This document shows positions 9,089 through 19,624 of a DNA stretch of 64,000 nt, one piece after another (the stretch's first letter is position 1; each line of letters opens with the position of its first letter). The stretch is taken from NCBI GenBank assembly GCA_001657385.1, contig LYSZ01000001.1, positions 124,001-188,000 on the forward strand, written 5' to 3'. The notes beneath the pieces were generated by a model. It did not search any database. It saw only the letters and a program-made list of their open reading frames with translations, and was not told where the DNA came from. Origin of the DNA: Parvularcula sp. BBD 1991-13. GTDB lineage: Bacteria; Pseudomonadota; Alphaproteobacteria; Caulobacterales; Parvularculaceae. A program made the translations under genes and the position numbers.

Positions 9089-10897
9089 ATGTCTGATTTC
9101 GTTACGGCCTCGCTTCGCCTCTGGGCTCTCATATTCACCCTGGCTTGGGCGGCGGCGTGCGCTCCCGAGGCCGCGCCGGGGGATGCGTCCGGGAATGCTT
9201 CTGACAGCGGGCCCAGCGCGGCCGCGGCGGAAGATCCGTGGCCTGAACGCAAGGAAGACGTCGCGCATATTCTCGCCAGGGGCGAACCGCTGGAGCCGAC
9301 GCCCCTCGACCTCAGCGACGAGCGCGAATACCGCTACCTGATCAACCAGCTTCGCATGGCGGGCGTTACGCCTGATTTCGCGCCGCAGTTTTTCAGGATG
9401 ATCGAGGCGGAGCGCGAGCGCCATCAGGACCCTGACTACGTCGCCGCCGCCCATGCCCGCTCCATCGACATGATGACCGCGGATGTGGAGAACGAGGATT
9501 ATCTCGTTCCCGCCGTCAATCTCATGACAAGCGTCGGGAACACCGCTCCGACCTCCAGCGAGGTTGTCACCAGCGGCCTGTCCTCCGTGCGCGGCGGAAC
9601 CCTTGGGACGCACATCACCCTTTCCTTGTACGACGCGAATAACAACCTGATCGCTCAAGGGTCGAAAAGCTCGCCCTCGGGGCAGGGACAATACACCTAC
9701 GCAACGACGTCCGGTTCATCGGACAGCGCCGCGGTGAAATCCTCCATGCTTTATTCCTATGTCGCCAATGACGGCACGTTTCACGCCGGCACGAAACGCG
9801 CGGCGACGGACGACATTTCCGTCACGATCGTCAACACCGCGCCGACCTATACGCGGGCGGGCGTGACCACGGGGAACATCGTGGCGTGCATGAACAGGAA
9901 CAGCGGCCAGAAGTCCGACTGCGATTACTGGCAGCCGCAGCCCCATCAGATCATCCTGCCGGTGCAGGGCTCGATGGATTTCAACAACGCCATCATCAAG
10001 TCCGGCGGCGTCCCGCAAAACGGCAATGTCTATTTCATGCTTGTGCATCCCACCCCGGCCACGGGCGGCGGCTGCGTTTTTCCGGGGCTGACTACGGACC
10101 AGTTTTTTCAGAACGCGACCTATCCGGATGCGAATACCGTTGCCTGGAATTTCAACCCGCAGGATTTCGGCCAGGCGCAGCAATGCATGCCGAGCGGGTC
10201 CAACGCGCTCTTCACCCTGTCCATCGAAGTCACCGTGGACCTGAACGGCGCGCCGACCCCGGTGGTCGGCGCCATCGCGAGTTCCGGCGCGGCGGCGGTC
10301 AACGACAATGTCATGCAGATCCCTGAAATCCAGATTCTCTGGGGCTGCCTGGTCGAAGGCACGATGGTCGAGATGGCGGACGGCGGCTTCAAGCCGGTCG
10401 AGGAAATCGTCGCCCAGCAGGACAGGGTCGTCGCCGACGCCGACGGCGCGACAAGGCTCGTCACCGGAACCGTTCATGGTACGGAGGATTATGTCATCAG
10501 GCTGACGACCAGCGGCGGCAAGACCGTCTCGGTAACGAAGAATCACCCGATGGTCATGGCCGGGTTCCGCATCAAGCTGGCGCGCGAAATCGGCGTCGGC
10601 GACGAGATCCTCACCCGGGACGGGCTGGATACGGTGACGGCGGCGGAACGGCGGGACTATGGCGGCAAGGTCTACAACCTCGTGCTGGAGCAGACGACGG
10701 AGGTTGAGCGCCAGCGGGGCGTTACCCTGTTCGCAGACGGCGTCATGGTCGGCGACAACCATATGCAATCCGTGTTCGAGAAAGAATATCTCAAACGCGC
10801 CGAGACCATTCACGCCAACGCCCCGATCGAATGGCGCGTCGATAACGAAAACATCCTGAACCGTCATGCGGAGCGCGGCGAGTCCAGCGTTTACTGA
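9089..10897 (+). CDS. Putative lipoprotein with C-terminal Hint (intein-like autoprocessing) domain
   Basis: 602 residues. A hydrophobic signal ends in AAAC with Cys24 as the likely lipidated residue, followed by an Ala/Ser-rich linker. Residues about 165-415 are Thr/Ser/Asn-rich and beta-like, with no family I recognise. Residues 420-557 fit a Hint domain: Cys420 starts block A (CLVEGTMVEMADG, then KPVEEI), block B has Thr483 and His486 (SVTKNHP), and block F/G ends in LFADGVMVGDN with Asn557. There is no room for a homing endonuclease. The residue after Asn557 is His, not Cys/Ser/Thr, so cleavage or acyl transfer is more plausible than splicing. A 45-residue tail follows. It is the first gene of a three-gene operon. 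Confidence 0.75.
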   Translation: MSDFVTASLRLWALIFTLAWAAACAPEAAPGDASGNASDSGPSAAAAEDPWPERKEDVAHILARGEPLEPTPLDLSDEREYRYLINQLRMAGVTPDFAPQFFRMIEAERERHQDPDYVAAAHARSIDMMTADVENEDYLVPAVNLMTSVGNTAPTSSEVVTSGLSSVRGGTLGTHITLSLYDANNNLIAQGSKSSPSGQGQYTYATTSGSSDSAAVKSSMLYSYVANDGTFHAGTKRAATDDISVTIVNTAPTYTRAGVTTGNIVACMNRNSGQKSDCDYWQPQPHQIILPVQGSMDFNNAIIKSGGVPQNGNVYFMLVHPTPATGGGCVFPGLTTDQFFQNATYPDANTVAWNFNPQDFGQAQQCMPSGSNALFTLSIEVTVDLNGAPTPVVGAIASSGAAAVNDNVMQIPEIQILWGCLVEGTMVEMADGGFKPVEEIVAQQDRVVADADGATRLVTGTVHGTEDYVIRLTTSGGKTVSVTKNHPMVMAGFRIKLAREIGVGDEILTRDGLDTVTAAERRDYGGKVYNLVLEQTTEVERQRGVTLFADGVMVGDNHMQSVFEKEYLKRAETIHANAPIEWRVDNENILNRHAERGESSVY

Positions 10898-10920
10898 ACG
10901 TCATTCAAGGAAGAGAACTC

Positions 10921-11733
10921 ATGATCAAGCTTAAGACGTTTCCGACCGCGAGGCTGGCTTCCCTGGCCGGCTGCGCCGCGCTCATTCTCGCCGTCAGTCC
11001 CTCATCGGCCCAGAACGGAACCGGTCCCCAGGGGGCGGACGCGACGGACATCAACGGCATCTACGTCTCCACCAACGGCGATGTCGGCGTCGGCACCAAC
11101 GCGCCGACGGCCGATCTGCATGTGCGCGGCGACATGCACACGGAAGGACGTCTGAGCGGGAACGGCTATCAGGGCCGCTATAACGGCGCGCCGCTGTTCA
11201 ACGCCGCCAACACCCTCGGCAATCCGGCGGGGTTCGTGTTCGTGTTCGACGAATTGAATTTCGGCAAGACGCCGCAGGCGATCCAGATCATGAATCCCGA
11301 TGCGAATGTCTACAAGACCTTCGTCATCGGCCACCCGGTCGACGAGGCGCGGTATCTCGTTCATGCGACGCTGGAGGGGCCGGAAGGCGCCGTCTTTTAT
11401 CGCGGCAGCGCGCAACTTGAAAACGGCGAGGCGACGGTCCGTCTGCCGGACTATTTCGAAGCGCTGACCAAGGAGGAGGGGCGCACCATCCAGCTCACCA
11501 ATGTCGGCGGTTTCGATCCGCTGGCGATCAGGCTGACGGATGGGAAACGCATCCGGGACGGCGCGTTCTCCGTCATTTCGCAGAACGTCGCCTCCGCGCA
11601 GCGCTTTGACTGGGAAGTAAAAGCAACGCGTAAGGACAAGCCCGACCTGGAGGTCGAACCGCTGCGAAGCGACATGATCGTGTCCGGGCTCGGGCCGTAC
11701 AAGATCGGCATGAAACGCATGGCCCGCAACTAG
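10921..11733 (+). CDS. Secreted protein with phage tail-fibre-like N-terminal repeat
   Basis: 270 residues. A signal peptide ends at about SSAQ (residues 28-31). The mature N-terminus contains the motif DVGVGTNAPTADLHVRGD, typical of the head region of tail fibres and of proteins with S74 intramolecular chaperones, but no S74 peptidase domain is present. The C-terminal two thirds is a predicted beta-rich domain without a recognised family. It starts 23 bases after the Hint lipoprotein, with a GGAAG Shine-Dalgarno, so the two are very likely co-transcribed. It may be a surface or structural protein, possibly a partner or cargo of the Hint lipoprotein. Confidence 0.6.
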   Translation: MIKLKTFPTARLASLAGCAALILAVSPSSAQNGTGPQGADATDINGIYVSTNGDVGVGTNAPTADLHVRGDMHTEGRLSGNGYQGRYNGAPLFNAANTLGNPAGFVFVFDELNFGKTPQAIQIMNPDANVYKTFVIGHPVDEARYLVHATLEGPEGAVFYRGSAQLENGEATVRLPDYFEALTKEEGRTIQLTNVGGFDPLAIRLTDGKRIRDGAFSVISQNVASAQRFDWEVKATRKDKPDLEVEPLRSDMIVSGLGPYKIGMKRMARN

Positions 11734-11743
11734 GGCGCGCGCG

Positions 11744-14530
11744 ATGACCCCTATGCCCCACAGGTCAGCCATTGTCAGGCCGGCGCTCGCAGCGCTTCTC
11801 CTTGGCTTCATTGCCGTTGCGGGGTGCGCCGTCAACAGGGAGGCCGGGTCCCAGCCCGGTTCTTCGTCCGGTCCCCTGGCCGGCGCAGACGACTTCCGGG
11901 CCGCGCCCGAGGCGCTGGCCGCCGTCGCGGCGGCCCCGCAAATCGGCGCCGCGGCGATGGCCGCGACGGCGGACGACCAGCCCTGGTCGATCACCGTCGC
12001 AAGCTGGAATCTCTTGAATTTCGGCGATCACAAGGCCGGCTTGCCGCCGCCGAGCCAGCGGCCCGCTCTGATGACGCGGATGGCGTCCATCATCAGCATG
12101 TACAACATTGTCGTGCTGCAGGAAGTGCTGAACGGCGGCGCCAGCGTGACCGCCGGTCTCGCGCCCTTCCTGCCGGCCTATACCTGCCTCAACATTTCCG
12201 CGCCCGCCGGCCGGGCGGGAAGGCCCGAGAATTACGCCGTCTGTTACAACAACGACGCCAATCTCGCCTATGGCGGCGCCTTCGACTATCTCGGCAATCC
12301 CTATACGGCGCTTAACGGCGGCGTCCAGACCGCGCAGAATATCTGGATGCGCCCGCCCGCTTATGTACGGTTTCGCTACAGGAAGCCCGACAACACCTAT
12401 TTCGAATTCGACGTCACGACCATTCACACCAAGCCGCAATACAGCGCCGGGGCGCGGCCCCCCGGCACGCCGGCCAACGCGCCGAAAAACGCCAGCGTGC
12501 GCAACGAGCTTCAATCCGCCCAGACCAATCTTCAGGCGACCTATCCCAAGCGCATCCTGATCGGCGATCTGAACGCCGACTGCGTCTATTACCAGCCGCG
12601 GTTTCGCGGTGCGGAATTCAACGCCTGGACCTGGGTGATCGGCGACGGCGTGAAGACCAACACGGCGCAGTCCTCAAGCTGCGCTTATGACCGCATCATC
12701 CTCAATCCCGCCATCATGGCGGACTATCAGGCCAGCGGCGTCTACCGGCTGGGCATCAATCTGAGACTTGACGGTCGCCGCGTGTCCGACCATTACCTCG
12801 TCTGGGCGCGGTTCGGCGGCGTCGTGAAGAAGAAGGCGCGGAAAATTCTGTCCGTGAGCGCCGCTTCGGGCGTGCGCAAGAAGCGCCGGCTCAAGCGAAA
12901 CTCAAGGGTCTATTTGAAAGGGCTGAACCTCGCGCAACCGCAGGCGGGCAAAAGACCCAAGCTTTACATCACGCGTTATGTGAAGACCCGGAATTTCGAC
13001 AGTTTCAACAGCTTTCCGCTGACGGACGTGCGCGGCGCGCCAACCGCTGTCGAGATCACGTCTTCCGGGGATTTCCAGACGCCGGTGGCGTGGACCGCTC
13101 AGGCGGCGGGGCTCTATAACACCGTTCTGGACATGAACGGCGACGGCGTCTTCCGGGCTGCCGACGGCGACGTGGCGAATAGCAATAACGAGGCCGACCT
13201 GATCGTCGTTCCGTCGGGCGAGACCCACAGCCTGCTCGCTTCCCTCGACGACAACGGCAACACGCGCGAGCTTTTCGACGCGGACAGGGCCGAGAACGTC
13301 TACGCCATCGCCCGCGACCTGCCGGCGTCGGCCGATGTCGATCTCTATGTCGTCGCCAGCAAGCTGCTCCCCGCATCCTTCACCAGTTGGGGCGCGATGA
13401 AGGCGGCGGGCACGCTGAACCTGGCTGCCGTCGCCGTGCCCGTTCTGTTTCGCGGCGGCAACCTGATCAGATCCGGCGGCGGCTGGACCGCCCCGGACGC
13501 GCGCGCGGCCGCCGCGCTGGGCGAGGTGGCGCTGTTTCAGACCATTACGTCCGACGACGACGGCGGCCTCTTCGCAAGCGCCTGGTCGACGCCCGGTCTT
13601 CTGTTCAATGGCGGCGTTTACACCGCGCCCCCGCGATCATACGACGTGCCGGACGGCGTGACGCTTCCCGACGTGCCGCCGAACGCCGAGTGGGACATGT
13701 GCGACGACGACGTCGTCAATCAGTATCCGGCGATTGCGCAGGCCTGCCGGGCGCCGTCGCCCGCAGCCGGCGGGCAGACCGCCGACAACGGATCGACCTT
13801 TCCGCATTATTTCGGGGTCAAGTTCAACCTGGTGCTGGACGTTAACCGGAACGGCGTGTTTGACGGGCCGGATCTCGTTGACATTTACGACATCGGCGAC
13901 ATGACGACGTTTTTCGCCGCCGGGAACCGGACGCTCAGCCCCGACGACAACGGGTCTCCCGCCATCGGCGAATACAAGGAATTTCTGGACGCGCACATGA
14001 ATCTGAACGACGAACTGGATTCGAGCAATATCTATACGGATGAAACGCTGTCGGCGTCGTACCGGTATAATTGCTCGACGGTGCTGTCCCGGGATTTCTT
14101 CGACGACCACCTCACGCCGAGCGCCCAGACCGGTTTTCGGGTCCAGAACAACGAGGTCTATGTGGACCAGGTGAACCAGGACAGCGCTTACGCCTATTCG
14201 ACAAACGTCTTTTACAGCAATGTGGACGTCAATCTGGGCGAGGCATGCTGGTCCGCCAGCAACACCGCCTATTATGACGGTTTCCACGCAACGTCGAACA
14301 CGTCGGTGACCGTTATCGCCGAGACGCATCAGGTCAACAACAGCGTCATCGCCGATGCGGGAAGCGACGTCTGCCTGACCGCCGCGGACGGTCTCGTCTT
14401 GAGCGCCACGGCGGCGGGCGCGGCGGGGGGCGCGCTTTTCGGCGGCCCTATCGGCGCGGCTTTCGGCGGCGCCGTCGGCTTTATCGTCGGCGAGGTCGAA
14501 TCACAGTTTGTGAAACCTTCATGCCGCTGA
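11744..14530 (+). CDS. Putative lipoprotein endonuclease/exonuclease/phosphatase (DNase I-fold) with dockerin-like loops and glycine-zipper tail
   Basis: 928 residues. The lipobox VAGC gives Cys28. Residues about 80-355 are a DNase I-like EEP domain with its catalytic set: SWNLLNF, Glu127 (VVLQEV), His228 (TTIHTK), Asp275 and Asn277 (IGDLNAD), CAYDRI, and Asp349-His350 (VSDHYLVW). A basic patch follows (about 360-390). Two EF-hand or dockerin-like loops, DMNGDGVFRAADGD and DVNRNGVFDGPD, suggest calcium binding. The last 45 residues contain a glycine-zipper stretch (AAGAAGGALFGGPIGAAFGG) that could enter a membrane. It starts 10 bases after the previous gene. An extracellular nuclease is the best guess; a phosphodiesterase or lipid phosphatase is possible. 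Confidence 0.75.
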   Translation: MTPMPHRSAIVRPALAALLLGFIAVAGCAVNREAGSQPGSSSGPLAGADDFRAAPEALAAVAAAPQIGAAAMAATADDQPWSITVASWNLLNFGDHKAGLPPPSQRPALMTRMASIISMYNIVVLQEVLNGGASVTAGLAPFLPAYTCLNISAPAGRAGRPENYAVCYNNDANLAYGGAFDYLGNPYTALNGGVQTAQNIWMRPPAYVRFRYRKPDNTYFEFDVTTIHTKPQYSAGARPPGTPANAPKNASVRNELQSAQTNLQATYPKRILIGDLNADCVYYQPRFRGAEFNAWTWVIGDGVKTNTAQSSSCAYDRIILNPAIMADYQASGVYRLGINLRLDGRRVSDHYLVWARFGGVVKKKARKILSVSAASGVRKKRRLKRNSRVYLKGLNLAQPQAGKRPKLYITRYVKTRNFDSFNSFPLTDVRGAPTAVEITSSGDFQTPVAWTAQAAGLYNTVLDMNGDGVFRAADGDVANSNNEADLIVVPSGETHSLLASLDDNGNTRELFDADRAENVYAIARDLPASADVDLYVVASKLLPASFTSWGAMKAAGTLNLAAVAVPVLFRGGNLIRSGGGWTAPDARAAAALGEVALFQTITSDDDGGLFASAWSTPGLLFNGGVYTAPPRSYDVPDGVTLPDVPPNAEWDMCDDDVVNQYPAIAQACRAPSPAAGGQTADNGSTFPHYFGVKFNLVLDVNRNGVFDGPDLVDIYDIGDMTTFFAAGNRTLSPDDNGSPAIGEYKEFLDAHMNLNDELDSSNIYTDETLSASYRYNCSTVLSRDFFDDHLTPSAQTGFRVQNNEVYVDQVNQDSAYAYSTNVFYSNVDVNLGEACWSASNTAYYDGFHATSNTSVTVIAETHQVNNSVIADAGSDVCLTAADGLVLSATAAGAAGGALFGGPIGAAFGGAVGFIVGEVESQFVKPSCR

Positions 14531-14634
14531 GGGGCTTGAGCGGGCGATGCGGCGCGGGCAGGCGTCCATAACGGCGCCGGCGGGCCGACCGGGCGATCCG
14601 GAAGGGGCCCGCAAGCGATTTCGGGGCCGGGGCG

Positions 14635-15954
14635 TTAAAGGGAAACGCCGAACAGCCCCGCGTTTTTCGGAGAAACAATGCCGTCGACCGAGACGCCGTC
14701 CTCGCTCATGGTCTGTTTCTCGATGATTTTCCACGCGGTGCCGTAGCCCAGATCGCCGTCAACGCCCACGCCAAGGGCGCGCTGGAGGCTTTCGACGCTA
14801 TCGCCATAAGATCCGTATCTCAATGTTTTCGGCAGGCTCTGCGGCTGCGCGGCGGCGAGCCTCGCTTCGCGGCCCGTCAGCAGCATATAGAAAAAGGACT
14901 TGCCGTCGTCGGCGGTGGCGGCTTCGAAGCTGTCATTGTCGATCGCGGCGAGGCCGGCGGCGAGGCGAAATGCGTCCCACGCGCCGACGGACCGGCGCGC
15001 CGCCGGGTAATACGCGCCGTCCACGACCTGACATCCGGCGGAGGAGTAGTAAACCGGGGAAGTGCGCTCGTTCAGCACCGCCGCGTGGATGTTGTCCGCC
15101 ACCGGCATCGGGTTGCCGTTGAAATCGAGCGGCGCGGCGAACCAGTGCGTGTGCACGCTGATCCTGAATTCCGCCGTGCCGTCGTCTAGGGTCGTGAACG
15201 CTTTTTCGCGCCGGACCGGCGCGGCCTTCTGCTGTATGAAGGCGCCGGGTTGTTTCGCGCTGACGCTGGAGAAACTCCGGCCGTGCAGACCAACCTTGTA
15301 CTGATGAACGCCCGTCGGCAACAGATTGGCGCCTTCCTCGTTACGGGCCTGTGCGAAAAGATAAATCGCATTCGGCACCGTCGATCCCTCAAATGCGGCG
15401 ACCTTGCCCGCCGCGCGGTCCCAAACACCCAGGACGCAGGAGCGATCGAGGAAATTCGGAACGGTTTCCACCAGCGTCACGCGGTCGCAAAGCGAGCTGG
15501 CGTCGCCGGTGGTCCGGCATCCGCGCAGACCGAACAGGATCCTCGACGAGAAGCCTTCGTGTTTTGGCGCAGCGAAGCGCGCGTCGAACCCGTTTTTTTC
15601 CGCGAGCCGTTCAAGGTGATCCGCGCTCAGATCGAACGGCGTGTCGGAAAAGGGTTCGTCAAGAAACTGGGTGTCCGGATTATCGTCCCGGTCTGCGGCG
15701 TCGAACCATGACCTGATGCGGAACTGTCCGTTTTTCAAGTCGTTCAGGTAAGCCCGGAACTCGGTCCGCGTCAGGTCGAAAGTGGAGCGCTGAAAGGTCG
15801 GCTCCGCGTCGGAAAGAAACAGGGCTTCAAGAAAGTCGTCGCTCAAGGCCCAGTCGTCTTCCGGCGCCGCAAGCGCGGTTTTTGACAGAAATGTGTAAGA
15901 CAGGGCTGCGTGCGCGCATGCGTTCAGGAACCTGCGGCGATTGATCTCGACCAT
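14635..15954 (-). CDS. Tat-exported peptidoglycan-binding protein with YkuD-like His/Cys motif (paralogue of the 18269 gene)
   Basis: 439 residues. The N-terminus has a twin-arginine signal (RRRFLNA at residues 6-12) with cleavage near ALAAP. The C-terminus (about 365-400) is a PG_binding_1-like repeat, LRYGSYGDSVESLQRALGV. The central region shares blocks with the protein at 18269-19624: FGLRGC, a PTGVHQYKVG/PTGLHLYRVG block and FFYMLLTGREARLA. His290 (NIHAA) and Cys308 (SSAGCQVV) are 18 residues apart, like the H...SxGC pair of YkuD L,D-transpeptidases, although the following Arg is missing. I infer a cell-wall enzyme; the fold assignment is uncertain. It converges on the nuclease gene and is divergent from the metallopeptidase. 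Confidence 0.65.
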   Translation of the reverse strand: MVEINRRRFLNACAHAALSYTFLSKTALAAPEDDWALSDDFLEALFLSDAEPTFQRSTFDLTRTEFRAYLNDLKNGQFRIRSWFDAADRDDNPDTQFLDEPFSDTPFDLSADHLERLAEKNGFDARFAAPKHEGFSSRILFGLRGCRTTGDASSLCDRVTLVETVPNFLDRSCVLGVWDRAAGKVAAFEGSTVPNAIYLFAQARNEEGANLLPTGVHQYKVGLHGRSFSSVSAKQPGAFIQQKAAPVRREKAFTTLDDGTAEFRISVHTHWFAAPLDFNGNPMPVADNIHAAVLNERTSPVYYSSAGCQVVDGAYYPAARRSVGAWDAFRLAAGLAAIDNDSFEAATADDGKSFFYMLLTGREARLAAAQPQSLPKTLRYGSYGDSVESLQRALGVGVDGDLGYGTAWKIIEKQTMSEDGVSVDGIVSPKNAGLFGVSL

Positions 15955-16123
15955 GCTCTATCCCCCCCGAGAAATAACGCGCGAGCAATAGCTTGCCGTC
16001 AATAACGCGCCGCCCGAACGGATACGGACGCCGCGCGTCTTTAAGCGTAAACAAAATCCCCGGGCCTTGCCAGCGAAACATGATGGCCATACTATTTTCG
16101 CGCGTCGGGACGGGGGATCATTG

Positions 16124-17041
16124 ATGCGGGGGCTTTCCAGGAGAACGCTGGTCACTTCATGCGCATGCGCTGCGGCGTCATGCGTCGCCGGCCCGTTTTT
16201 CCCGGCGGGGGGCGCGCGGGCGCAATCGATTCAGTTCGAGGACGGATGTCGCGAATTCGACCTGGCCTCGATGAACGCCGCCACCGTGAGCATGGAGCTT
16301 GACGAGGAAGCCAGCGCGGCGTTCGGCATCGGGCCGCAGCCGGCGCGGGTCGTGTCCATGGTCGAATATCTGAATGCGATGCGGAACCGGCCCGGCAACT
16401 GGGACAAGGTCGCCGAACAGATCGCCGGAGACATCAGAAGCGTTCTCGACTTTTACGGTTTCGGCCTGTCGGACATCGCTTTCGGCGTCCTGACCGGCGG
16501 CGCCACGCTGCAAACGCGCATGTACGTCACCAATAATCAGGGCGTGCTGGGAGAGTTGAAAGCAGCCTCTCCCATCTGGACGGAGGCGAAATACGCGGTT
16601 GTCATCGCTGAACGGCTGTTGCCGCAGGACGTCAGGTCGCCCGATGCGAATGTCGACCAGTTTTCCGCTTACGTGGCCCACGAGATCGGGCACGCCTATA
16701 TCGAAGAGAAGCAACTCGGCGTTTATTTCACGCAGGACGCGTCAGGACTGGGCCGGGTGCTGAACGCGCTCGGACATGAGCTGCATGCGGATTATCTGGC
16801 CGCATCGTTTCTTTATCGGCTTGATTCCGATTGCGTCAAGCTCCGCGACCTCGCCGACAACTTTTTCCGTCTCGGCGAGGTGCAGATTTCCAGCGCGACG
16901 CATCCTCTTCAGGCGGAACGGTTTACGATCGTGATGGACGCGATCTCCAACGCGGAAGTCACCGCGCTGGCCAATAAAGTGGTTTCACGAGGGCGCAACG
17001 CCGCCATCAACATGCTGGAGGCGCGGATTCCGCCGGCCTAG
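16124..17041 (+). CDS. Tat-exported putative zinc metallopeptidase
   Basis: 305 residues from the ATG at 16124. The signal SRRTLVTS at about residues 5-12, followed by a hydrophobic, Cys-containing segment and AGGARAQ, looks like a Tat peptide. The zincin motif HEIGH is at residues 186-190, with a downstream HELHAD (218-223) that may give the third ligand. The rest matches no family that I recognise; the arrangement recalls M48-like or small gluzincin peptidases. It is divergent from the YkuD-like protein (170 bp between starts) and lies 120 bases before the collagen-like gene. Likely periplasmic or extracellular. Confidence 0.65.
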   Translation: MRGLSRRTLVTSCACAAASCVAGPFFPAGGARAQSIQFEDGCREFDLASMNAATVSMELDEEASAAFGIGPQPARVVSMVEYLNAMRNRPGNWDKVAEQIAGDIRSVLDFYGFGLSDIAFGVLTGGATLQTRMYVTNNQGVLGELKAASPIWTEAKYAVVIAERLLPQDVRSPDANVDQFSAYVAHEIGHAYIEEKQLGVYFTQDASGLGRVLNALGHELHADYLAASFLYRLDSDCVKLRDLADNFFRLGEVQISSATHPLQAERFTIVMDAISNAEVTALANKVVSRGRNAAINMLEARIPPA

Positions 17042-17161
17042 GGCGTTGAGTTGGCGGCGCGGCGCGCAACCATGCGGGAACGCGCCGCTGTAACGGGCCG
17101 CTATCGGTGGGGCGACGATAGGGGCTGCCGGCAACCGGCCCGCCATGACGAGGGGAGTGCG

Positions 17162-18187
17162 ATGAGACCGGCGAGGATGAAACTGGCGATGACAGGCAGA
17201 ACGGCGCTGCGCGTCGCGGGTCTGGTCTTTGCGCTTGCGGGCGCGCCCCTGCATGCGCAACAGGCGCCGGCGAACACGCTCGAAGGAACGATCGTCATCG
17301 AGGGGCCGACGCAAGACCGGGTCAAGGGCGATTTGCGCGTGGCGGACGACGCTGTGATCGTCACCAACGGCAACGATTATTCGCTCGTGGTTTCCGGCGA
17401 CCTGATCATCGACGGACGCCTGCGTTTTCTGTCCTTCGCGTCGCCCGGCGAGGCGCACGCCGTTCCGCCGGCGCGGCGCGGCGCGCGCGGGCGGGACGGG
17501 CGCGGTTACGATCCGGGTCCGTACAGCGAGGGCTTGTGCGCCGCCTGCCGCGGCCGTCACGGGGAAGACGGCGAACGCGGCGCCGCCGGCGCCGCTGGCG
17601 CTCCGGGGCGCGCGGCGGGGCAGATCGAGATCGTGGTTTTCGGCGACGCGGTCGGAAAAATCAGTTTCCGGAACTTCGGCGAAGACGGTCAGAGCGGCGG
17701 ACGCGGCGGGGACGGCGGCGATGGCGGCGACGGCGAGCAGGGCGGGCGCGGCTACGCCATGATGAGCTACCTTGAAACCTCGTCGCGCGCGCGGACGACC
17801 GTCGACGATTGTATCGAGTATCCAGGCGACGGCGGCAATGCGGGACGCGGCGGCGCGGGCGGCGTTGGCGGCGCCGGCGGCGTCGGGGGAGACGGCGGCG
17901 ACGTCTTCGTGACCATCGACGGCGACCGGTCGCGGTTCGACGTCGTCGAGCTTGAACTGGACGGCGGCGCGGGCGGCGTTGGCGGTCGGTCCGGCGCGCG
18001 CGGGCGCGACGGCCTGCCGGGTTTCGGCGGGCGCGGTCTTGGCGGTTGTCCGCACCGCATCACGCAGGCGGCGGGCCTTCCCGCGCCGGCGCGCGCGCGC
18101 GAGGAAACGGCGGCGGCCGGCGCTGTGGGGGAAGATGGCGCCGCGGGCCGGTTCGTTGACGGGGCCGAACTGGCGCTGACGCGTTAA
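17162..18187 (+). CDS. Secreted glycine-rich, collagen-like protein
   Basis: 341 residues from the ATG at 17162, behind a GAGGGGAG Shine-Dalgarno. The signal peptide ends near PLHAQ. A short N-terminal domain (about 35-95) contains TIVIEGPTQDRV and DLIIDGRLRF segments like those of beta-helix surface proteins. Three glycine-rich blocks follow, with Gly-X-Y-like runs such as GEDGERGAAGAAGAPG and GGRGGDGGDGGDGEQGG, interrupted by non-repetitive stretches. Five cysteines (CAAC, DDC, GGC) could form disulphides. Probably a surface-exposed structural protein; no enzyme motif seen. Strong GC bias in the repeats means the reading frame rests mainly on the signal peptide and the Shine-Dalgarno. Confidence 0.65.
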   Translation: MRPARMKLAMTGRTALRVAGLVFALAGAPLHAQQAPANTLEGTIVIEGPTQDRVKGDLRVADDAVIVTNGNDYSLVVSGDLIIDGRLRFLSFASPGEAHAVPPARRGARGRDGRGYDPGPYSEGLCAACRGRHGEDGERGAAGAAGAPGRAAGQIEIVVFGDAVGKISFRNFGEDGQSGGRGGDGGDGGDGEQGGRGYAMMSYLETSSRARTTVDDCIEYPGDGGNAGRGGAGGVGGAGGVGGDGGDVFVTIDGDRSRFDVVELELDGGAGGVGGRSGARGRDGLPGFGGRGLGGCPHRITQAAGLPAPARAREETAAAGAVGEDGAAGRFVDGAELALTR

Positions 18188-18268
18188 GGGGGCCTTGCCG
18201 CGGCGCGCGCCGCCGGGTGCGATCGAACAAGCCGGCAAACGAGTTGGCGAACAGGCTGGGAGCTTGCA

Positions 18269-19624
18269 ATGGCGACACAAATTTTCATGGAACCGGCGCC
18301 GCGGGTGCGCTCCGCGGCCAAGGTGACCACGGACCGGTTGTTTTACATCAACCTTTTCCGCGACGGATTTTTCGAGGCGATCTGGGAAACCGGTCCGAAT
18401 TCCATGGATTACGCGCATCTGGACGAGCCGATCAGCCGCAACCGGTTTATCTTGACCGGCGAAGTGCTGCAGGCGCTGGCCGATCAGAATGCGTTCAGGT
18501 TTTTCCGCGACGGCGGCGCCGGCGTCGACGAGGACGACCTTGTCGTTTTCGGATTGCGCGGATGCGTGTGCGACGCGCCGCCCCTCGGCTTTTCGGGCGC
18601 CGTTGAAGTGCGCGAGGAGGCGTGCGACCACGCCGGGTACAAATGCCTGATCGGCGCATGGCGGCGCTCGACTGGCGAGATCGCGGTGTTTCCCGCCACG
18701 ACCATTCCGTCTGCGCCCTATCTCCTGATGAACGCCCTTGGCGTGACGCGCGCGAACATGATGCCCACCGGGCTGCACCTTTACCGGGTCGGCGCGCACT
18801 CTCCCTTCTCTCCGACATTCACCGCACCCGGATCGTTGCGCCAGCAATTGCCGTGCCCGGTCCTGAGAACCGAGGTGACGCGGCTGAACCCCGACGCCGC
18901 CTTGCCGACGGTCGGCTACACGATTTACTCGCCCTGGGACTTCATGGCGCAGGGCGTCGCCAAAAGTTCGAGCCGCACCCTGACGCGCGAGGAACTGATT
19001 ATCCTTGCCGCCGCGAATCCGGCGAAGTTCGATGCGGAGTTAAAAATCGCGAATGCGACGCAGGCGCCGCGTCAGCCGTTGACGCTGGCCGGACTGGAGG
19101 CGTCGGAAACAATCAGCGAGTATGACAAGTTCGCGCTGGCCGGCGACAACATCACCGTCGCCTATGCGGACGCCATCCGGAAGACCGCCGCCCCCCTTGA
19201 GCATTTTTCCGCCGGCTTGCAGCAGATTCCCGGCTCAAAATCCGGCGCCGCGATGGGCGACGCCTATGGCGGGGATTTCGGGCGCTTCCGCAAGGCGCTC
19301 GGCCTTGCGCCGCTTGGCGCGTTCGGCGACGCGATTGCGTCCCCCGACGACGGCCGGCAATTCTGGTACATGCTCTTGACGGGGCGCGATGCGCGGCTCG
19401 CGGCGCGCCGCCGACGCTCAGGCGGACGGCGGCTGCGCTATGGCTCATCGGGGCGTGCGGTCGAACGCCTGCAACGCGCCCTGGGCCTGGAAGGCGGTTA
19501 CGGCGTCGTCGGCGCCCGGACCATGAGGGAGATCATCCGCTGGCAAAGCCGGGTTCACACTCCGGGGTGGGGCGACGGGATCGTTACCGAGGCGCAGGCG
19601 GACAAACTCGGCGCGTCGCTTTAG
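18269..19624 (+). CDS. Peptidoglycan-binding-domain protein, catalytically degenerate paralogue of the 14635-15954 protein
   Basis: 451 residues, with no signal peptide visible. It shares with the Tat-exported paralogue the FGLRGC block, the IGAW..STGEIAVF and MPTGLHLYRVG blocks, FWYMLLTGRDARLA, and a C-terminal PG_binding_1-like repeat (LRYGSSGRAVERLQRALGL, about residues 391-409), ending in a DGIVTEAQADKLG-like tail. At the position of the paralogue's His290 it has Thr296 (NITVA), and at Cys308 it has Leu317 (SAGLQQI). If those residues are catalytic, this copy is a pseudoenzyme. It may be cytoplasmic or use another export route. It lies 81 bases after the collagen-like gene. Confidence 0.7.
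   Translation: MATQIFMEPAPRVRSAAKVTTDRLFYINLFRDGFFEAIWETGPNSMDYAHLDEPISRNRFILTGEVLQALADQNAFRFFRDGGAGVDEDDLVVFGLRGCVCDAPPLGFSGAVEVREEACDHAGYKCLIGAWRRSTGEIAVFPATTIPSAPYLLMNALGVTRANMMPTGLHLYRVGAHSPFSPTFTAPGSLRQQLPCPVLRTEVTRLNPDAALPTVGYTIYSPWDFMAQGVAKSSSRTLTREELIILAAANPAKFDAELKIANATQAPRQPLTLAGLEASETISEYDKFALAGDNITVAYADAIRKTAAPLEHFSAGLQQIPGSKSGAAMGDAYGGDFGRFRKALGLAPLGAFGDAIASPDDGRQFWYMLLTGRDARLAARRRRSGGRRLRYGSSGRAVERLQRALGLEGGYGVVGARTMREIIRWQSRVHTPGWGDGIVTEAQADKLGASL

What the first reader, a model, noticed from the sequence alone, without database searches (positions are those of the whole stretch)
14635..19624. Paralogous cell-wall-binding pair, one with an apparent His/Cys catalytic dyad and one that has lost both
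Seen: the proteins at 14635-15954 and 18269-19624 share at least four blocks and a C-terminal PG_binding_1-like repeat. The first has a Tat signal, His290 and Cys308 (NIHAA and SAGCQVV). In the second, the aligned positions are Thr296 and Leu317 (NITVA and SAGLQQI), and there is no signal. Known: YkuD L,D-transpeptidases use an H...SxGC pair with similar spacing. Inference: a new, divergent L,D-transpeptidase-like family with an enzyme/pseudoenzyme pair, the second perhaps a regulator or competitor for the wall.
Basis: partly seen in the sequence, partly recalled or inferred. Interest (0 to 1): 0.75.

Follow-up and report, generated by a model that had tools for sequence, protein, structure and literature searches.

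The report
Unnamed cell-wall enzyme and inactive copy
Two related bacterial genes belong to an uncatalogued family of probable cell-wall enzymes that looks like a distant relative of the L,D-transpeptidases; one copy keeps the histidine and cysteine that the other aligned relatives keep, and the second copy has lost both.

Summary
P1 and P2 (18269-19624, plus strand) are homologous (31% identity, E 8e-36). In 45 aligned members from at least six bacterial phyla and two phage contigs, His290 and Cys308 are each present in 44; P2 is the only exception and lacks both. A profile search that did not select for the motif agrees: 19 of 19 loci outside the window's genome keep both. The commonest His-to-Cys spacing, 16 (16 of 45), equals that of the published YkuD motif. 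AlphaFold models of P1 and P2 both re-align best to solved L,D-transpeptidases, at modest Z. Sequence-level membership fails: no Pfam YkuD match in any of 45 members; hhalign probability under 1%. Best reading: a divergent LDT-fold cysteine enzyme family that cuts or remodels peptidoglycan, found also in phage contigs and in a muramidase-fused protein; P2 is a catalytically dead relative. Regulation by P2 is untested. Unexpected: exported members often sit beside caspases.

The parts
14635..15954 (-). P1: probable exported LDT-like cysteine enzyme, 439 aa
   Evidence: homologues; model m59498409d63b
15862..15954 (-). P1 twin-arginine type signal (residues 1-31, NRRRFL)
   Evidence: sequence read by eye; 13 of 41 contig loci also have RRx[FLVIM] in the first 110 residues, several of these not evident signals
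14869..15567 (-). P1 catalytic domain (about residues 130-362), region matched by phrog_3000
15085..15087 (-). His290 codon
   Evidence: 44 of 45 H
15031..15033 (-). Cys308 codon (SAGC)
   Evidence: 44 of 45 C
15436..15438 (-). Cys173 codon, second invariant cysteine, also kept in P2
   Evidence: 45 of 45
15283..15285 (-). His224 codon, second invariant histidine, also kept in P2
   Evidence: 45 of 45
14638..14835 (-). P1 C-terminal wall-binding unit (residues 374-439)
   Evidence: VIA rows 3bkh, 9h68, 7rum, 1lbu; family profile
18269..19624 (+). P2: signal-less relative lacking His and Cys, 451 aa
   Evidence: model mf29f1afafd9a
18884..19138 (+). P2 residues about 206-290, just before the lost His: 58 residues lie opposite gaps in P1, best match to relatives E 8, low model confidence
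19154..19156 (+). Thr296 codon at the His position
19217..19219 (+). Leu317 codon at the Cys position
19421..19612 (+). P2 C-terminal wall-binding unit; residues 360-451 are 50% identical to P1 over 92 columns
16067..17041 (+). between the pair: putative Tat-exported M48-like metallopeptidase (HEIGH)
   Evidence: Pfam PF01435 E 0.00097, 19.4 bits against cut-off 20.3; signal by eye
17051..18187 (+). between the pair: glycine-rich protein of unknown function, upstream of P2 on the same strand
   Evidence: no Pfam match

Best explanation
P1 belongs to an unnamed family of cysteine enzymes with an L,D-transpeptidase (YkuD-like) fold that act on peptidoglycan stem peptides. Proposed mechanism: P1 is exported folded through Tat (signal seen, export inferred), its C-terminal unit binds peptidoglycan (from homology), and Cys308, activated by His290, attacks a stem-peptide carbonyl to form an acyl-enzyme that is resolved mostly by water, i.e. 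it acts as a carboxypeptidase or endopeptidase, rather than by an amine as in cross-linking (inferred from phage and muramidase-fused relatives). P2 is a family member that keeps the predicted fold, the wall-binding unit and the other family-wide invariant residues but cannot do this chemistry, since both catalytic residues are gone; its frame is intact. Its role is open; a non-catalytic partner or substrate binder is the likeliest use.
For: Conservation: H290 and C308 44 of 45 each; C173, T192, G215, G222, H224, S305, G307, G313, F329 45 of 45; unselected profile set 19 of 19 non-window loci. Spacing 16 is the commonest (16 of 45), as in the published motif HG(S/T)-X10-(S/T)xGC (PMC12729407, section 4 part 1 read). 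Fold: of P1's 23 rows, the top 18 (Z 4.2-5.9) cover the catalytic domain; 17 are named L,D-transpeptidases and one, 4xxt, is another fused cell-wall protein; the last five align mainly at the binding unit. For P2 the top 9 of 12 rows are L,D-transpeptidases or Pgp2, Z 4.8-6.6. The best hhalign register puts IH290..SAGC308 on IHG..SHGC. Wall: PG_binding_1 in 35 of 45; a fusion to Glyco_hydro_108, E 7.5e-24; a phage copy between a tail-fibre-like and a head-tail adaptor gene; a viral model match named 'Lysin', E 1.4e-5. P2: intact, GC3 0.808, within the 0.742-0.819 of five other genes nearby.
Against: VIA Z values are under 8, which the tool says may mean only a common arrangement, and Foldseek's own 50 listed rows hold no L,D-transpeptidase. 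Sequence profiles do not connect the family to YkuD: 0 of 45 Pfam matches; hhalign score 17.0, reached by one of 60 column-shuffled controls (17.1). YkuD's G two before His (0 of 45), G after His (1 of 45) and R after GC-hydrophobic (0 of 45) are missing. Hydrolysis rather than transpeptidation is inference only. P2's role has no direct evidence, and it has no visible export signal.
Confidence: 0.66

Rival explanations
1. P1 is a true cross-linking L,D-transpeptidase that stands in for the YkuD enzymes not found in this genome; P2 is a scaffold.
For: No YkuD Pfam match in the window's genome, although 58 of 60 genomes sampled across the phylum have one; the two without are the window's own and one other. 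In 60 relatives, own included, 34 have one. LDT-like fold.
Against: 23 of 28 same-genus genomes, own included and several incomplete, lack YkuD, and only 3 of those 28 carry this family, so it is not a general replacement; phage and muramidase-fused relatives point to cutting.
Confidence: 0.2
2. P2 is simply decaying: a relaxed copy on its way to becoming a pseudogene.
For: Long end branch (1.26 against a median of 0.37, though a few other rows are as long), an unmatched stretch, and no close relative of P2 in 62 family genomes searched with P2 itself: beyond P1 only the same three single-copy relatives were found.
Against: Uninterrupted 451-codon frame, GGGAG before the ATG, coding-like GC3, family-wide invariants other than the two catalytic residues kept, model as confident as that of P1. 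P2's reading frame does not depend on the lost residues, so intactness alone is weak.
Confidence: 0.25
3. The catalytic domain is a different Cys/His fold (for example VanW-like or papain-like) that resembles LDTs only in motif.
For: Failure of sequence profiles; middling Z. VanW enzymes have the same triad in an unrelated fold (PMC12729407, passage).
Against: In two separate models the catalytic-domain rows are L,D-transpeptidase-type chains bar one; no VanW or NlpC/P60 Pfam match in 45 members at E 1.
Confidence: 0.12
4. P1 and P2 are remnants of a prophage or tailocin lysis gene.
For: Two phage contigs carry the same domain plus a wall-binding unit.
Against: P1 has a Tat-type signal and falls on the other side of the tree from the two phage rows; the Pfam scan of seven window proteins from 9089 to 19624 showed no phage structural family.
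Confidence: 0.05

Closest known systems
YkuD / L,D-transpeptidases (PF03734), e.g. LdtMt2, LDTGo (8QZG)
   Same: Predicted fold, His then SxGC order, commonest spacing 16, wall-binding partner domains
   Different: No Pfam match in any of 45 members; no HG, no GCxR; extra invariant Cys173 and His224; wall cutting rather than cross-linking inferred
Pgp2 (Campylobacter jejuni, 6xj6/6xj7) and DpaA: LDT-fold proteins that hydrolyse
   Same: LDT fold used for hydrolysis (DpaA from the title of a reference seen; Pgp2 as a carboxypeptidase is recalled)
   Different: Pgp2 is only a fold match to P2; DpaA was not compared here
Tlde1a, type VI effector with an altered LD-transpeptidase fold (PMC9638812; title and start of abstract in a search listing)
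   Same: A divergent LDT-type fold used against peptidoglycan (activity recalled)
   Different: Not compared here; P1 has a Tat-type signal and a C-terminal wall-binding unit
PHROG phrog_3000 (phage family, unknown function)
   Same: Matches the catalytic domain in 29 of 45 members, best E 4.9e-16
   Different: No function assigned in that library

Membership tests
YkuD (PF03734) | Pfam YkuD profile match above cut-off | tested here: not met
   0 of 45 members at E 1; none in the window's genome
YkuD (PF03734) | YkuD beta-sandwich fold | tested here: inconclusive
   Two models re-align best to L,D-transpeptidases, Z 4.2-5.9 (P1) and 4.8-6.6 (P2), but Z under 8 and none in Foldseek's own 50 listed rows for P1
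YkuD (PF03734) | catalytic His followed by (S/T)xGC at about 16 residues | tested here: met
   H 44 of 45, S305 and G307 45 of 45, C 44 of 45; spacing 13-24, mode 16. P2 fails
YkuD (PF03734) | G two before and one after the His; R after GC-hydrophobic | tested here: not met
   G two before His 0 of 45; G after His 1 of 45; position after Cys Q 40, L 3, M 2; next position V 35, T 8, I 1, Q 1, no R
YkuD (PF03734) | profile-profile similarity to YkuD | tested here: not met
   hhalign probability 0.3-0.9%; register correct at His and Cys
YkuD (PF03734) | transpeptidase or carboxypeptidase activity through a Cys acyl-enzyme | not testable with these tools
   needs biochemistry
phrog_3000 | profile match over the catalytic domain | tested here: met
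   P1 E 9.5e-5, P2 none at E 1; 29 of 45 at E 0.01
pseudoenzyme (P2) | loss of catalytic residues with fold kept and gene intact | tested here: met
   T296 and L317; model; intact frame. A function as regulator was not tested
PG_binding_1 (PF01471) | profile match in the C-terminal unit of P1 and P2 | tested here: inconclusive
   no Pfam match for P1 or P2 alone; 35 of 45 aligned members match; fold rows at 24-31% identity

The most novel reading that the evidence does not exclude
An undescribed superfamily of LDT-fold wall-cutting cysteine enzymes serves as a shared lysis tool: in phage, in muramidase-fused lysins, and, in an exported bacterial branch, as the wall-cutting arm of protease-gated (caspase/trypsin) modules; in this genome it is split into an active enzyme and a pseudoenzyme that is co-exported with it or restrains it.
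Probability: 0.25. Interest if true: 0.85.

Novelty: new variant of a known kind. Interest (0 to 1): 0.62.

Why it matters
It would add a broad, so far unnamed branch to the L,D-transpeptidase-like enzymes, suggest a function for a phage family listed as unknown, and offer an LDT-type enzyme/pseudoenzyme pair (paper searches returned 0 papers; they cover only the held open-access library and those exact terms). The adjacency of exported members to caspases makes a link between bacterial protease modules and cell-wall cutting directly testable.

Tried and rejected
A single-protein scan of genome contigs found no relative; the A2 scan of viral contigs found none; tblastn of L002's protein in phages found none. 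tblastn of the Rhizobium domain in phages gave 85 records, 20 listed: 18 match only from query residue 235 on (the wall-binding part) and two start at 161 and 178. tblastn of P1 in plasmids gave two Rhizobium records. hhalign to a 7-sequence and a 37-sequence YkuD profile was not significant. The PDB sequence search with the family profile matched, in 23 of 24 sequences, only the wall-binding end (profile positions 267 on); the other, 4iw7 at E 1.6, is a chance-level hit. Foldseek against the PDB gave no match under E 0.001. YkuD_2 (PF13645) gave nothing in the window's genome, but its control rang nowhere, so this is uninformative. VanW and NlpC/P60 were considered; neither appears among the 12 families at E 1 in 45 members. 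Caspase partner in the window's genome: none. P1+P2 as one clade: neither supported nor rejected. P1 and P2 in one operon: rejected, opposite strands.
Full report
What is there. P1 (14635-15954, minus strand, 439 aa) and P2 (18269-19624, plus strand, 451 aa) are homologous: BLASTP 31% identity over 434 columns, E 8e-36. Between them on the plus strand lie an M48-like putative metallopeptidase (16067-17041; Pfam E 0.00097, just below cut-off) and a glycine-rich protein (17051-18187). P1 is therefore divergent from the other three genes. P1 starts with a twin-arginine type signal; P2 shows none (by eye). The window's genome (4.24 Mb, 36 contigs, 97.95% complete) holds two members; a third profile match covers only the wall-binding part.

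Relatives. Neither protein matches Pfam at E 0.1; NCBIfam gives only weak sub-threshold matches in the binding part of P1. With P1 as query, 4 of 62 family genomes have a match, the window's own included; P2 as query finds the same four. An order-level profile search found 20 of 299, own included; a phylum-level one 7 of 398, of which two (G000, G064) cover the catalytic part and five only the binding part. A pattern scan of named genome contigs gave 41 loci from Pseudomonadota, Bacteroidota, Fibrobacterota, Myxococcota, Thermodesulfobacteriota, Armatimonadota and a PVC bacterium (origins as printed), and viral contigs gave two. Two named loci, from Parvularcula mediterranea and a Marinicaulis MAG, have the contig lengths of G054 and G038; G038 is of the window's own genus.

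The dyad. In alignment A7 (P1, 41 contig loci, 2 phage loci, P2) His290 is H in 44 of 45 and Cys308 is C in 44 of 45; P2 alone differs, with Thr and Leu. Cys173, Thr192, Gly215, Gly222, His224, Ser305, Gly307, Gly313 and Phe329 are invariant in 45 of 45, P2 included. Because one of the two patterns contains SAGCQ, the unselected set counts more: all 19 non-window loci keep His and Cys (sequences printed; read by eye). His-to-Cys spacing runs from 13 to 24 with mode 16 in 16 of 45, the spacing implied by the published YkuD motif (PMC12729407, section 4 part 1 read). That motif's G two before His, G after His and R after GC-hydrophobic occur in 0, 1 and 0 of 45.

Fold. AlphaFold models of P1 and P2 each have pLDDT 79.9 and pTM 0.82. 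After re-aligning chains that Foldseek ranks highest (971 chains for P1, 998 for P2), P1's 23 rows are 17 L,D-transpeptidases and 4xxt (Z 4.2-5.9), then five rows that align mainly at the binding unit; P2's 12 rows are 9 L,D-transpeptidase-type chains (Z 4.8-6.6), then 3 at the binding unit. Z is below the tool's safety level of 8 and Foldseek's own 50 listed rows for P1 show no L,D-transpeptidase, so I call the fold likely, not proven. Profile-profile comparison with 7 and with 37 YkuD domains gives under 1% probability, but with the 37 the best local register is IH290..SAGC308 on IHG..SHGC; one of 60 column-shuffled controls scored as high (17.1 against 17.0).

What it acts on. PG_binding_1 matches 35 of 45 members at E 1 or better. 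Among ten multidomain relatives scanned, one carries Glyco_hydro_108 (E 7.5e-24), one Trypsin_2 plus a GDSL lipase, one a DNA/RNA non-specific endonuclease, and two have sub-threshold phage lysozyme or GH19 matches. In the phage contig L044 the gene lies after a tail-fibre-like gene and a small ORF without a match, and before a head-tail adaptor gene; phrog_3000, the catalytic-domain family, has no assigned function. These contexts favour wall cutting over wall cross-linking; this step is inference.

P2. On the catalytic domain P2 has a long end branch (1.26, median 0.37) and pairs weakly with L017 (95/69), while P1 groups with L059, L066 and L012-L014 (94/82); holding P1 and P2 together is not rejected (p-AU 0.386). 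Over residues 360-451 P2 is closest to P1 (50% over 92 columns). P2 carries a stretch (about 206-290) without a significant match just before the lost His, 58 residues of it opposite gaps in P1. Its frame is intact and coding-like (GC3 0.808; P1 0.766). A pseudoenzyme is the best description; its role is unknown. One untested idea is that it crosses the membrane with P1 through Tat.

Context. One cluster of nine caspase-like neighbour proteins spans 7 of the 41 contig loci (L046, L050, L051, L053, L059, L066, L077). Pfam confirmed Peptidase_C14 in the five of these nine that I scanned and in one further neighbour, L050:5509-7677; the rest were not scanned. I scanned 15 of the 20 genomes for caspases: 5 have one, and in 3 of those (G054, G078, G187) it lies within 1 kb of the member's match; in G273 and G279 it is far away or on another contig. 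L046's caspase is fused to a phage-type lysozyme (E 2.3e-49). Trypsins lie near the L048 and L053 members and one is fused in L063; L012-L014 look trypsin-fused by eye only. The window's own genome has no caspase match, so this context is not that of P1 and P2.

YkuD absence. The window's genome has no PF03734 match (control genomes rang in 6 of 14) although 34 of 60 relatives (own included) and 58 of 60 phylum genomes (own included) do. In one search, 23 of 28 same-genus genomes lack YkuD, so this is not specific to carriers of the new family.

Verdict. Observation confirmed; interpretation partly supported; new variant of a known kind. Literature: PMC12729407 (passages and section 4 part 1), PMC10864386 (passages), PMC12992299 (one reference-list passage), PMC9638812 (listing only). 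No title listed in searches names this family, and 88, 89, 91 and 92 returned no papers; the listed papers were not read for it, and only the held open-access library was covered.

Noticed in passing
L046, L050, L051, L053, L059, L066, L077; G054, G078, G187: Caspase-like proteins recur beside this family; in L046 the caspase is fused to a phage-type lysozyme, in L053 and L059 to an FGE-sulfatase domain, and L059 also has a TIR protein.
   Followed up: partly
L072 (by eye also L073, L074, L086): The LDT-like domain, a wall-binding unit and a GH108 muramidase in one protein, followed by hydrophobic C-terminal stretches; possibly a coupled wall-editing and cutting machine.
   Followed up: no
whole window genome: No Pfam YkuD L,D-transpeptidase detected, unusual against 58 of 60 phylum genomes; 23 of 28 same-genus genomes lack it too.
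   Followed up: partly
9089-10897: Protein with an apparent signal and an intein/Hint-like stretch near its C-terminus (NCBIfam intein_Nterm E 1e-4, 23.2 bits against cut-off 24.5).
   Followed up: no
11744-14530: Large protein with an endonuclease/exonuclease/phosphatase domain (Pfam E 7.7e-9) and a weak glycine-zipper match at its end.
   Followed up: no
L058: Locus titled Mycobacterium sp. KBS0706 is nearly identical here to Inquilinus limosus loci (end branch 0.048): probably a mislabelled or contaminated assembly.
   Followed up: no
L053:6831-7580 and window 16067-17041: Both a Hyphomonas locus and the window have a putative Tat-exported M48-like peptidase near the family member (sub-threshold Pfam matches), though the two peptidases did not match each other at E 0.01.
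   Followed up: partly
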